Shown: positions 30,801 through 36,977 of the stretch, piece by piece
Position numbering within the stretch: the stretch's first letter is position 1
How the letters are laid out: the number at the start of each line of letters is the position of its first letter
Assembly (NCBI GenBank): GCA_960531495.1
Contig: OY482860.1
Location: 9,189,710-9,253,709, forward strand
Source: Zeus faber
Lineage: Eukaryota > Chordata > Actinopteri > Zeiformes > Zeidae
Direction: 5' to 3'
DNA: 64,000 nt
The notes under the pieces: generated by a model
The model's database searches: none
What the model was told of the DNA's origin: nothing
The model's input: the letters and a program-made list of their open reading frames with translations, nothing else
Translations under genes and position numbers: made by a program

Positions 30801-33800
30801 TTTTTTTTCAAGTTCCTCTGCATCAAACCCTAAGCCTACCGCTGAACCTTATTCTTACCTTTTCTAAATGAACACAACACACTTTATACTTACCTGTGCA
30901 GAGAAATCCAAGAAAATCATTGTACTTACCTTTCTTTGTTCAGGGAAAAAGAAATAAATGAATGGTCCAATTTATTCCTGTTTCCAATCACTGTTAGAAT
31001 TATCCAGAACATAACCTTCCTGATTTCTACCCAATACCCTGTCCCCCTACCTAAGTCTTAAATTGTCTTAAAAAGGAGGTCTTTAGTAAAGTCAATGAAG
31101 TTAAACTCATGGATACCCGCAGACACCTTTTAGGTAAAAGAGTGGGAACGCAGACTGTTCCTCATCCTGTAGTTCCAAAAGCAAAACACACTTGTGCAAA
31201 AGGCTTCGGTCGCCCACAACTTCAAAACAAATCTCTGCTGCATTACATTAGCCTCTAAGGAATGTAGTTATGCAGGGTATAGTCTGAGCCATAATCTGTA
31301 CCACAGTGGTTCACTGTCATATTTTTCCCCCCTGTGTGTTTGGCAGCATCAGCCCCCCCAAGCCTCTGCTTCTGGACAGCTCACCGGCGGCTAAGGTCCA
31401 GGTCATGTCCATCCCCGTCATTGGCTCCAGTGAGTTTCGCTCTTCCAGTGATTATTAGATTGCCTTCTGTAAATATTTCTTACTGTCTACAATTTTTCCT
31501 ATCTGGAAATGTGACCAAAAAAAACCAAAAGTAGACCAAAAGTACCAAAAAAATAAAAAGAAAAGAAAAAACGAGCTAACTAAAAGATTGAAAATTGCTG
31601 TTTCAAAGTCTGTGTGCCTGCAAGTTTATCGGGCTTAGAGAGCATTTTCCTAAATTGTTTTCTTTAACATATCTTGTATTTTTTCTTTGTTAAAATGTGT
31701 CAGTGAAATGTGCATTTTAAATTGCTTGTAGTCGAGTTTTCGTAAATACCTATTGTATGTAAAATTGTAAATTAGGTTGCTATAAAGTGTGTGTGTGTGT
31801 GCGTGCGTGCGTGCGCGCGCGCGCCACAGAGCAATGCTGTCCCAAAATGGACAGATTCTCTCCCTCTAAATGCTTATGTTTTCTCTCTGCCCTGTCTCTT
31901 TCCCTCCGTCCCTGTCCTTTAGAGGCAGCTGCCGGAGCCAAGGCTCCCTCTCCGCCAGCTAACAGCTCGCTCCCCTCAGTCCCGAGTGCGAATGAGAATC
32001 CCAGCGCCACCAGCAGCCCCAAAGGGGACTCTTCACCCAACGGCTTGGACGACTCCATCAATGGTGTGGGCGCCACCGCAAAGAGGCCACACTCGCCCAC
32101 AGAAGAGGACCTCGCCAAGAGGCAAAAGGACACGGAGGTAGGGTGGAGGTCTTTCAAATTCAGAATTTGAATCTTGCCATATTGGGAGACACTGGGGCTC
32201 TGATTTTGGTTTTGGTGTTGGTGTCCCTGATTTTATGCGTGACCATTTGCATTTAGGCCAAGACGCAACAGTTGGACACTGAATAAAAATCTTTCTTATT
32301 TCTAAACTGCAGGTGCATTACTGGTTTGAGTGCAGATAATCTACATTGCATTTTTCTACATTGCACATGAAAATGAAACTTTCAACTTAAATCTTTCATG
32401 TAAATTTGAGTAGCAGAAATGGATCCCAAGTGGATTATATAGCAACGGTAATATATTTCAAACCTACTATGTTTGTTAACCATATTTAAAATATATCAGC
32501 CTTAGAAATGTCCCGCGACCCTGTGTGCATATCAAGTGACCCCAAGTTTGAGAATGTCTCAGGATGAGAATTTCTGGGCAGTCATGACTGGTTTCCTACT
32601 CTGAGACGCTTGATATGGCTTGACAGACGCTTGGCAACCGTCTGGCAGCTTCTGTATAACTGTATTACTAGGACATATTTCACGTAGTTCAGACTAGGTA
32701 TTTTAAGAACATTTATTGAAGTCAAGGTCTGGCTCTGAGTGAGTTAATCGCAACCCAAGTCAGTGTCTCGGGTTGTGATTAACTCACTCACTGTTTACAG
32801 TACTCTCTCTCTCCCCGCCCGGTGCCCGCTCCTTGTCCTGAGCTGACTGAAAGAGCAAGAGTCCTCAAAGGCAACACAAAGTCTGACTCGATCTGCACAA
32901 AATCACTCACCCACAAGTTCCATGCCACAGTGACGGTAACCGTCCACGAATTTTAATTTGTCCCTTTTTAGTAGTTTACTCCTACTCGATTCTGATTGAT
33001 CATAACATTTTAATCAAAACAAATTCAGAAATAAATGTTTTGCCTCCTGGTCTTTCACTCACAATGATCAAAATGGTATGGATCATTTTCCTGATCATGT
33101 GAATCCGTGGGGACTGGGAATGGGTGGAGCTTGTTGGTTCAGCGAGCGACTGGATGATTTGATACCCGGCTGTCAACTCGAGTCGAGCAGCTCTGACTCG
33201 TGAGTCGTACCAGTGTACTTTCTATACTGTTTATAGTACCATCCACCCCTACTCCCCCTTTTTTTTTTTCTTCTTCTATAATACCCTTTAATGCCATTTT
33301 TTTCAGTCTCATCGGTCAAGCTCCCGTCACAGACTGTAACTTCACCCACGTGTCTGATCCTCCTTTGTTTGTCTTTTTGATGCTGCAGGTGGTGCTAAAC
33401 GATGAGAGTGCATTCAAGGAGCCCTATCCACCATCCTGCGACCCCCACATGCAAGGAGATCGACCTGCCACTGTAATTCAACGTTACTGTTATTCTTTCA
33501 TCGTGAACTCAAGATATAATATTGTGAAACACAGTCCATACGCTTAATGATGAACGTATTGTGAGAACATTTCACACATTAGTTAGTTTTATCTAATTAA
33601 CAAGAGGCTCAGCTCTGAGTTTATTTAAAAGACAACATAGTCTAGTGCAACCAACTGTAAACGAGATTGTTTAACATTGGATTTTGAAAAAATGTCAAAC
33701 GTTGAAATAAAATTGGTATTAGGGCTGAACAATTTGGGAAAATAATTATCTAAAAATATTTAAAAATAAATAATAATAAAACTATAAAAAATTATCTTGT

Positions 33801-36800: not shown

Positions 36801-36977
36801 GAGCACAAGGCCTCCAAACACGCGGCCCCGCCTGTCGGCAGCTCCATCCCTACGTTGGTGAGCCGGGGGCCCGACCCGCTGAACGGAGCCGCTTCCAAGA
36901 GGCCCCACTCTCCCTCCCTGGACGAGCAGGCCAAGCGGCTGAAGGAGACGGAAAAGGCCAGGATTCACATAGCCTGA
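15859..36977 (+). CDS. papolg: Poly(A) polymerase gamma, 24 coding exons, two alternative C termini
   Basis: This nuclear poly(A) polymerase adds 3' poly(A) tails. Exons: 15859-15875, 18221-18367, 18649-18715, 18877-18958, 19054-19163, 19470-19523, 20345-20456, 20741-20830, 20947-21085, 21927-21999, 23918-24038, 24587-24671, 26292-26345, 26599-26718, 26961-27070, 30196-30317, 30433-30599, 31347-31429, 31923-32137, 33389-33472, 34565-34624, 35023-35126, 35349-35443, 36787-36977. They sum to 2502 bases (833 residues). The catalytic nucleotidyltransferase motif is FGSYRLGV...GADIDAL (S96, D107, D109), with the third aspartate at D161. The RNA-binding domain and a Ser/Pro-rich tail with KRPHSP motifs follow. 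Intron 5 is GC-AG (CGG/GCAAGT). Reading through exon 22 gives NRHK then TAA at 35128-35130: a 739-residue form, close to human (736). Exons 23-24 resemble exons 18-19 and supply an alternative tail. Confidence 0.96.
16550..17170 (-). mobile_element. LINE ORF1 fragment with zinc knuckle, papolg intron 1
   Basis: The minus strand at 17168-16947 encodes a peptide starting [16 protein letters not shown], a CCHC zinc knuckle (C-x2-C-x4-H-x4-C). Another minus-strand frame, 16883-16677, continues with an acidic stretch and [12 protein letters not shown], as in the C-terminal part of L1/Tx1-type ORF1 proteins. Frameshifts separate the pieces, so this is a decayed non-LTR retrotransposon. Confidence 0.6.
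18102..18155 (+). repeat. Third copy of the GATTCAAGAGGTTT repeat
   Basis: GATTCAAGATTCAAGAGG, a T run and GTCACATACGTATACAT match the leading part of the repeats at 430-545 and 1790-1970. Confidence 0.55.
19655..20307. mobile_element. TTAA-flanked inverted-repeat element, papolg intron 6
   Basis: The left end TTAAAGCAACACTATGTAAC matches the reverse complement of the right end (TTAAAACAGCACTAGGTAAC) at 17 of 20 positions. Both ends begin with TTAA, as in piggyBac-type target sites. The interior shows no transposase, so it would be non-autonomous. The class assignment is inference. Confidence 0.55.
21427..21646 (+). mobile_element. tRNA-derived SINE, papolg intron 9
   Basis: The head has a Pol III A box (GCTCAGTAAGTAGAGCGGG) and B box (GGTTGCTGGTTTGATACCC). 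The body carries GTCCTTGAGCAAGACACCGAA, and the tail reads GACAAACGCGTCTGCTAAATGATG, the signature tail of a widespread fish SINE family. It lies in the same sense as papolg. Confidence 0.85.
22430..23172 (-). mobile_element. Decayed Tc1-like transposon, papolg intron 10
   Basis: The minus strand encodes pieces of a Tc1-type transposase: [19 protein letters not shown] near 23160, then [16 protein letters not shown] near 22980, then [13 protein letters not shown] near 22820, then sequence matching the catalytic region further left. Frames are broken by stops and shifts, so it is dead. A TACACTGATCAG motif at about 22058 resembles Tc1-type ends and may mark its 3' boundary. Confidence 0.8.
23206..23520. 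mobile_element. Pogo/Tigger-like MITE with 24-bp perfect TIRs, papolg intron 10
   Basis: The element is 315 bases including a TA dinucleotide at each end. The left end TACAGTGGTACCTCGACTTA and the next six bases are matched exactly by the reverse complement of the right end. TA target duplication plus a CAGT-G start is the mark of pogo/Tigger elements. It has no transposase. The near-perfect TIRs suggest a young insertion. It lies 33 bases from the Tc1 relic. Confidence 0.8.
25060..25560 (+). mobile_element. Decayed Tc1-like transposase, papolg intron 12
   Basis: The plus strand at 25281-25550 encodes [20 protein letters not shown] and later [12 protein letters not shown]. These are the second and third parts of the DDE catalytic core of Tc1 transposases (QDN-PKH; SPDLNPIE). 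Upstream out-of-frame pieces complete the pattern. Stops and shifts show it is inactive. Confidence 0.8.
26177..26213. repeat. Poly-T tract, papolg intron 12
   Basis: A run of about 22 T is followed by TTTTG units, upstream of exon 13. It may be the reversed tail of a retroposed sequence. Confidence 0.7.
27820..28125 (+). mobile_element. LINE 3' tail, papolg intron 15
   Basis: The end contains ACCAAGACAAATTCCTTGTA, ACTTGGCAATAAAGATGATT and a CTGATTCTGATA tail. This is the characteristic 3' end of fish L2/Maui-type LINEs. The upstream 200 bases look like its 3' UTR; no reverse transcriptase is visible. Confidence 0.65.
28553..29520. mobile_element. hAT-like element, papolg intron 15
   Basis: The left end GAGATGCACTGATCGATCGG and the reverse complement of the right end (AGAGAACACCGATTGCAATT) are diverged versions of the fish hAT terminus that reads GATGCACCGATTGATCGG. 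No transposase frame remains. Confidence 0.5.
31789..31823. repeat. (TG)n(CG)n microsatellite before papolg exon 19
   Basis: TG changes into CGTG and then CG steps about 100 bases upstream of the exon 19 acceptor. Confidence 0.9.
32737..32789. other. 20-bp near-perfect hairpin, papolg intron 19
   Basis: GAGTGAGTTAATCGCAACCC at 32737-32756 pairs with 32770-32789 at 19 of 20 positions, the exception being one G-T pair. The loop is 13 bases. It lies in intron 19, between the duplicated exon cassette and exon 20. Confidence 0.85.
33718..34495. mobile_element. hAT-like fragments, papolg intron 20
   Basis: TAGGGCTGAACAATTTGGGA at 33720 resembles the end of a common fish hAT MITE. From about 34140 to 34490 lies a separate GC-richer block ending in CACCCCAGTTTGGCCAACCC, the typical end of another hAT MITE. 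Boundaries are approximate. Confidence 0.4.
36255..36329 (-). mobile_element. hAT MITE terminus, papolg intron 23
   Basis: Read on the minus strand from 36329 it gives CTAGGGCCGCACGATTATGG and then GATCACGATTATTTTTCTCA, the terminal sequence of an abundant fish hAT family. The other end was not found with confidence. Confidence 0.55.

What the first reader, a model, noticed from the sequence alone, without database searches (positions are those of the whole stretch)
31347..36977. papolg carries a duplicated exon pair that makes an alternative C terminus, with a stop codon inside the splice donor
Exons 18-19 (31347-31429, 31923-32137) and exons 23-24 (35349-35443, 36787-36977) encode the same layout: a PPKP start, MSIPVIGS at the end of the first exon, then a Ser/Pro stretch, an NG/LNG motif, KRPHSP and AKR-K-TE. 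The preceding introns enter in the same phase (2). Exon 22 ends in ALNRHK where human PAPOLG ends in TLNR. Its donor AA/GTAAGA contains TAA in frame. If unspliced, the protein stops at 739 residues (human 736); if spliced, it gains the duplicated tail for 833. Donor use therefore sets the C terminus. Human PAPOLG, as I know it, has one copy of this cassette.
Basis: partly seen in the sequence, partly recalled or inferred. Interest (0 to 1): 0.85.

Follow-up and report, generated by a model that had tools for sequence, protein, structure and literature searches.

The report
Duplicated exons lengthen a fish polymerase
In what looks like a fish, the gene for a nuclear enzyme that adds poly(A) tails to RNA carries a second, old copy of two of its own exons behind the usual stop codon, which probably gives the protein a 94-residue longer tail; that the animal switches between a long and a short tail is possible but not shown.

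Summary
Observation confirmed. The window holds a 24-exon papolg (poly(A) polymerase gamma). Exons 18-19 and 23-24 encode the same cassette ([18 protein letters not shown], AKRxKxTE) with identical intron phases. Similarity scores 141; the best of 5000 shuffles scores 78. Both copies look coding: pN/pS 0.43, and 14 of 23 fourfold sites differ under kept residues. Each copy has one bipartite NLS-like pattern. papola of the same genome ends at the equivalent peptide with no such tail behind it.

The switch is weakly supported. A stop inside the donor is routine for phase-2 introns: 6 of the 7 counted have one. No AATAAA or ATTAAA lies between the stop and exon 23, though intron 23 holds three. 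Retaining intron 22 alone leaves a junction 313 nt past the stop, a typical nonsense-mediated-decay target. I favour an old exon-pair duplication whose copy became a mostly constitutive C-terminal extension, the former stop being absorbed into a splice donor. Transcripts and orthologues could not be examined; splicing and age are inferred.

The parts
15859..15875 (+). papolg exon 1 (MKEMT..), the only candidate that met my criteria (ATG, phase-2 donor with 8 or more of 9 consensus bases) in 9.0-18.15 kb
   Evidence: gives 13 residues before YGITS and so 833/739
18221..30599 (+). papolg exons 2-17 with their introns (catalytic, central and RNA-binding domains and start of the C-terminal tail)
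   Evidence: Pfam PAP_NTPase, PAP_central, PAP_RNA-bind; best solved match Poly(A) polymerase gamma 4lt6
31347..31429 (+). exon 18, cassette 1 first half: PPKP ... MSIPVIGS
31923..32137 (+). exon 19, cassette 1 second half: Ser/Pro stretch, [19 protein letters not shown] (bipartite NLS pattern)
35023..35126 (+). exon 22, ends ..[13 protein letters not shown] + AA/; the C-terminal peptide if unspliced
   Evidence: papola of the same genome ends ..[12 protein letters not shown] stop
35127..35132 (+). 5' splice site GTAAGA of intron 22 overlapping the in-frame stop TAA (35128-35130)
35349..35443 (+). exon 23, cassette 2 first half: PPKP ... MSIPVIGS
36787..36977 (+). exon 24, cassette 2 second half: [19 protein letters not shown] + KARIHIA stop; the donor that ends exon 19 is absent and the frame runs to TGA
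38118..38123 (+). ATTAAA followed by GT-rich DNA, possible poly(A) signal of the long form (another ATTAAA lies at 37377)
   Evidence: GT fraction 0.74 downstream; 0.56 for 37377

Best explanation
A tandem duplication copied exons 18-19 of papolg, with their splice sites, to a place beyond the original stop codon. The copy's acceptor is used from exon 22 through a donor that overlaps the original stop (CAC AA/G TAA GA), so splicing removes the stop. The copy's own last donor decayed (GAG/GTAGGG corresponds to GAAAAGGCC) and the frame runs on seven residues to a TGA, making it the terminal exon. The main product is therefore an 833-residue PAP gamma whose former C-terminal peptide ([13 protein letters not shown]) is internal and is followed by a second PPKP/IPVIGS/bipartite-NLS cassette. 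Inclusion is probably mostly constitutive; unspliced messages would stop at 739 residues and probably be degraded. Shown: the sequences, phases, open frame, protein-level similarity and coding signature. Inferred: the direction of the duplication, use of the splice, constitutive inclusion, decay of the unspliced form, and the NLS function.
For: Protein similarity far above shuffles and specific to the matching exons. Same phases 2 and 1. In 80 aligned codons, differences at positions 1/2/3 are 30/18/51, pN/pS 0.43 with bootstrap 0.31-0.58, and 14 of 23 fourfold sites differ in conserved residues. GC3 0.76 in cassette 2 and 0.74 in cassette 1, while introns 22 and 23 have 0.37 and 0.38 GC. Usable sites: the intron 22 donor matches 7 of 9 consensus positions with a pyrimidine-rich acceptor; the intron 23 donor matches 9 of 9. 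Exactly two KR-X10-K[KR]X[KR] motifs in the 833-residue protein, one per cassette; 0 of 20000 shuffles of its C-terminal part give two. No AATAAA/ATTAAA between stop and exon 23, and ATTAAA with GT-rich DNA after exon 24. papola ends at the equivalent peptide, and in the 15,854 sense bases held after its stop there is no PPKP, IPVIG-like or KRxxSP motif and no segment like either cassette above background. The tail's significant matches in the genome search are its own two exons.
Against: No transcript seen. The intron 22 donor is on the weak side in the U1 pairing estimate (-4.5 kcal/mol; of the 20 other introns scored 16 are stronger and 4 weaker). Intron 23 holds AATAAA (36236) and ATTAAA (35659, 36578) hexamers that could serve a short form. 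Synonymous divergence is near saturation (pS 0.72) and no orthologue was available, so constraint rests on two copies within one genome; the protein-guided alignment favours kept residues. papola is a poor outgroup: it has no PPKP or IPVIGS motif, and two successive exons of its own carry KRxxSP (similarity 48, reached by 5 of 2000 shuffles), so repeated KRxxSP motifs are not unique to papolg.
Confidence: 0.7

Rival explanations
1. Regulated alternative C terminus: intron 22 is spliced in some cells and retained in others, with the 739-residue form made as stable protein.
For: In-frame stop at the papola-like end; rather weak donor and short 222-nt intron; AATAAA at 36236 and ATTAAA at 35659 and 36578 in intron 23 could end a composite terminal exon.
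Against: Stops in phase-2 donors are the rule in this gene, 6 of 7 counted. No AATAAA/ATTAAA between stop and exon 23; the DNA after the three intron 23 hexamers is not GT-rich (0.45, 0.48, 0.38). Retaining intron 22 alone predicts NMD because intron 23 has the strongest donor scored.
Confidence: 0.2
2. Exons 23-24 are an ancestral part of vertebrate PAPOLG, lost in tetrapods, rather than a fish-lineage gain.
For: Divergence between the copies is near saturation (pS 0.72, dS about 2.3), so the duplication is old.
Against: Nothing like the tail lies after the stop of papola in the same genome, which only excludes an origin before the papola/papolg split with retention in papola. That human PAPOLG has 736 residues and no such tail is recalled, not tested.
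Confidence: 0.25
3. Cassette substitution: exon 17 (phase 2) can join exon 23 in frame, swapping cassette 1 for cassette 2 and dropping exons 18-22 with the SIKLALNR peptide.
For: Phases of exons 17/23 and 18/24 are compatible. Tandem duplicated exon substitution is a known kind (PMC9741552, start of abstract in a listing).
Against: It needs skipping of five exons, and I saw no sequence feature that favours it; no specific search for one was made.
Confidence: 0.04
4. Exons 23-24 are a dead copy (exonic fossil) not used in mRNA.
For: No expression data were available.
Against: Open frame of 94 residues over two exons, intact splice sites, synonymous excess, coding-like GC3.
Confidence: 0.04

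Closest known systems
Vertebrate PAPOLG (PAP gamma)
   Same: Catalytic, central and RNA-binding domains; best solved match is Poly(A) polymerase gamma 4lt6 (1003 bits; PAP alpha 887). C-terminal peptide [12 protein letters not shown] resembles the end of this genome's papola.
   Different: A 94-residue tail after that peptide carrying a second copy of the exon 18-19 cassette. That human PAPOLG lacks it is recalled.
COE/EBF H2d exon duplication (PMC2394523, abstract and outline seen)
   Same: Tandem exon duplication included as mandatory in vertebrate transcripts, presented as counter-selection of alternative splicing.
   Different: There a repeated helix inside the protein; here an exon pair placed beyond the original stop, extending the C terminus.
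Tandem duplicated exons in mutually exclusive splicing (PMC9741552, start of abstract in listing; PMC9013439, abstract and outline)
   Same: Homologous exons of equal phase in one gene.
   Different: Those events choose one exon or the other; here both copies fit one transcript and are separated by three exons.

Membership tests
Poly(A) polymerase gamma (PAPOLG) | PAP_NTPase, PAP_central and PAP_RNA-bind domains in order | tested here: met
   E 6.9e-84, 2.1e-72, 1.5e-32
Poly(A) polymerase gamma (PAPOLG) | Closer to PAP gamma than to PAP alpha | tested here: met
   1003 bits against 887; a second PAP gene, read as papola, lies on contig C2
Poly(A) polymerase gamma (PAPOLG) | Protein ends at the SIKLxLNR peptide | tested here: inconclusive
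   peptide present at the exon 22 end; whether the protein ends there depends on splicing, not observed. That this defines the family is recalled
Tandem exon duplication | Homologous exons in one gene, above chance | tested here: met
   141 against a shuffle maximum of 78 (5000)
Tandem exon duplication | Same intron phases in both copies | tested here: met
   2 then 1 in both
Mutually exclusive (substitution) exons | One copy or the other in a transcript | not testable with these tools
   no RNA data; phases allow it
Alternative last exon / intronic polyadenylation switch | Poly(A) signal between the proximal stop and the next exon | tested here: not met
   six hexamers scanned: no AATAAA or ATTAAA in 35131-35348, only AGTAAA at 35246; a composite exon reaching into intron 23 (AATAAA 36236, ATTAAA 35659 and 36578) is not excluded
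Classical bipartite NLS | KR-X10-K[KR]X[KR] pattern in each cassette | tested here: met
   residues 638 and 808; the pattern is recalled and nuclear import was not tested

The most novel reading that the evidence does not exclude
The stop/donor overlap is a control point: U1 snRNP binding over the old stop decides whether the peptide corresponding to the PAP C terminus that U1A contacts is the free end (739 aa) or is buried inside a longer tail with a second NLS-like cassette (833 aa), so a poly(A) polymerase would set its own sensitivity to splicing factors by splicing of its own message.
Probability: 0.1. Interest if true: 0.75.

Novelty: new member of a known kind. Interest (0 to 1): 0.42.

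Why it matters
Poly(A) polymerase activity can be regulated through its C terminus: two molecules of U1A bind it and inhibit the enzyme (PMC6884704, passage read). A PAP gamma in which that end is moved inward by a copied cassette would be a natural test of whether a free C terminus is needed. It also illustrates how a stop codon can be absorbed into a splice donor: papola's stop in the same genome overlaps a donor-like CAG/GTAGAA.

Tried and rejected
Relatives elsewhere: the 94-residue tail in genome contigs (none of 292 pattern matches confirmed) and viral contigs (none of 16), and a two-cassette alignment in genome contigs (none of 36). These collections are bacterial/archaeal and viral, so the misses say nothing about fishes. 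Pfam listed no family for either cassette at E up to 10, and a profile of the two cassettes matched no PDB chain. Rfam gave nothing at gathering score in 15500-38600.

A wider duplication including exons 20-22: the best window segment outside those exons scored 45, background level. Intron homology: the introns before and between the cassettes do not exceed 200 shuffles (21 and 24 against maxima of 32 and 32). The stretch after the cassettes scored 30 against a shuffle maximum of 26 and a maximum of 29 in 400 real stretches. That match is 20 nt of T/G-rich DNA, lying 67 and 88 nt past the equivalent donor points (my arithmetic); it may be a remnant of intron 19 but is too simple to count.

Dating: dS about 2.3 is near saturation, so no date is given. 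papola as outgroup: its two KRxxSP exons score 41 and 26 against cassette 1 and 40 and 34 against cassette 2, all at shuffle level (177 to 1649 of 2000 shuffles as good), so it roots nothing. My first reading that papola has one cassette was wrong and is withdrawn: it has no PPKP or IPVIG-like motif in the 20 kb held, and two exons with KRxxSP.

Misassembly: rejected, since the copies differ at 99 of 240 aligned codon positions.

Papers: PAPOLG with C-terminal, isoform, zebrafish, fish, splice variant or exon duplication, neo-PAP, PAP C terminus and U1A. In the listings I saw (capped at 8 to 20 rows) no title or abstract start describes this tail. Passages only were read in PMC3287031, PMC3647115, PMC4893057 and PMC6884704. 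Gunderson 1997 and Vagner 2000 are not held and were seen only as references.

Calls of no use: 2 (a guessed DNA pattern: 36 three-mismatch places, none of them papolg, and 77 in the control; its header gave the window's place in the genome), 3 (wrong frame), 25 (bacterial-type scan), 37 (no paper).
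Full report
What is there. It holds one papolg gene on the + strand. A 24-exon model, from MKEMT at 15859 to the TGA at 36975-36977, gives 833 residues; stopping at the in-frame TAA at 35128-35130 gives 739. The protein has the three poly(A) polymerase domains, and its nearest solved relative is Poly(A) polymerase gamma 4lt6, 1003 bits against 887 for PAP alpha.

The duplication. 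Exons 18-19 and 23-24 encode [34 protein letters not shown] and [34 protein letters not shown]. The local alignment scores 141; 5000 shuffles reach at most 78. Exon 18 pairs with 23 and 19 with 24, while crossed pairs are at chance. The best other segment among the 1694 ORF segments of the window scores 46. Entry and internal phases are 2 and 1 in both. Exon 24 lacks the donor that ends exon 19 and runs seven residues on to a stop.

Is it coding? Of 80 aligned codons, 38 keep the residue. Of 23 fourfold sites under kept residues, 14 differ. Differences at codon positions 1, 2 and 3 are 30, 18 and 51. pN/pS is 0.43 (bootstrap 0.31-0.58). GC3 is 0.76 in cassette 2 and 0.74 in cassette 1 (0.62 over the gene), while introns 22 and 23 have 0.37 and 0.38 GC and the 3'UTR 0.44. 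The protein-guided alignment favours kept residues, so these figures are somewhat generous. Each cassette carries one KR-X10-K[KR]X[KR] motif; 0 of 20000 shuffles of the C-terminal part had two. The consensus is recalled; import was not tested.

The stop in the donor. For a phase-2 intron the split codon takes the G of GT, so GTAA or GTGA always reads as TAA or TGA. Of the 23 introns, one search counted 22; 6 of the 7 phase-2 introns among them have it, and intron 1 would make 7 of 8. The overlap is therefore ordinary as a feature. What is not ordinary is its place: directly after [13 protein letters not shown], where papola of the same genome ends ([12 protein letters not shown] stop). papola's stop itself overlaps a donor-like CAG/GTAGAA with a better U1 pairing estimate (-8.0 against -4.5 kcal/mol). 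Conversion of the old stop into a donor would thus have needed little change; this is inference.

Is the C terminus switched? Nothing in the sequence requires it. Six hexamers were scanned. Between the stop and exon 23 there is no AATAAA or ATTAAA, only AGTAAA at 35246; an ATTAAA at 35101 lies inside the coding codons before the stop. Intron 23 holds AATAAA at 36236 and ATTAAA at 35659 and 36578, with downstream GT fractions of 0.45, 0.48 and 0.38, and a variant CATAAA at 35891 with 0.64. After exon 24 there are ATTAAA at 37377 (0.56) and 38118 (0.74). So a short form ending in intron 23 is not excluded. Intron 22's donor matches 7 of 9 consensus positions. Its U1 estimate of -4.5 is on the weak side of the 21 of 23 introns scored (16 stronger, 4 weaker; intron 1 and the GC-AG intron 4 were not scored), and intron 23's is the strongest at -11.7. 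A message retaining intron 22 alone would carry a junction 313 nt after its stop, beyond the usual 50-55 nt rule for NMD (general knowledge). I therefore rank constitutive inclusion above a switch, without transcript evidence for either.

Origin and age. In a genome search with the tail, 2 of 19 listed matches fall below E 0.1, its own two exons; the next is E 0.54. PAP catalytic exons lie at two loci, papolg on C16 and a second gene read as papola on C2 (all 25 listed matches). In the 15,854 sense bases held after papola's stop there is no PPKP, IPVIG-like or KRxxSP motif, and no segment resembles either cassette above background (338 sense-frame segments of the 20-kb stretch). papola is a limited outgroup: upstream of its end it has no PPKP or IPVIG-like motif and has two successive exons with KRxxSP, 48 against each other (5 of 2000 shuffles as good) and at shuffle level against the papolg cassettes. 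So a duplication within papolg fits best, with repeated KRxxSP motifs seen in papola too. Synonymous divergence is too near saturation to date it. Tandem exon duplications are a known kind, and mandatory inclusion of a duplicated exon has been argued for COE/EBF (PMC2394523, abstract).

Function, inferred. The C terminus of poly(A) polymerase is bound by U1A, which inhibits the enzyme, and functional PAP-inhibitory motifs are known in U1-70K, SRSF4 and U2AF65 (PMC6884704, passage). In the long form here the equivalent peptide is internal and is followed by a second NLS-like cassette. Stronger nuclear retention and altered control by splicing factors are plausible, untested consequences.

Verdict.

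Noticed in passing
window 37126-37176: A hairpin with 24-nt arms (96% complementary, 3-nt loop) in the papolg 3'UTR, 149 nt after the long-form stop: MFE of the 91-nt stretch -40.9 kcal/mol, z -8.25, 0 of 200 shuffles as good. Its 19-nt outer arm occurs without mismatch only here in the genome search; the two 2-mismatch hits are no more than the reversed control gives. No Rfam match at gathering score.
   Followed up: partly
window 37162-37174 and 38160-38172: GTATACGTGCTTT, part of the hairpin arm, recurs exactly 998 nt downstream.
   Followed up: no
window 19164-19469: papolg intron 4 appears to be a GC-AG intron (CGG/GCAAGT), the only non-GT donor in the gene model.
   Followed up: partly
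window 35101-35106: ATTAAA inside the SIKL codons, about 20 nt before the stop; a cleavage site there would fall near the stop/donor. Speculative.
   Followed up: no
window 32204-32223 and 37041-37060: 18 of 20 identical T/G-rich nucleotides after cassettes 1 and 2, a possible remnant of intron 19.
   Followed up: partly
window 39138-41768, - strand: A single 877-codon open frame downstream of papolg on the opposite strand matches dynein regulatory complex subunit 7 (MORN_DRC7 E 5.7e-108, DRC7_C E 2.4e-38, full profiles). An uninterrupted drc7 could be a retrocopy, since human DRC7 has many introns (recalled); no multi-exon drc7 was looked for.
   Followed up: partly
L046 (G000:C2), sense exons near 6873225 and 6872962: papola carries KRPGSP and KRTASP in two successive exons, a possible repeat of its own (score 48, 5 of 2000 shuffles as good).
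   Followed up: partly
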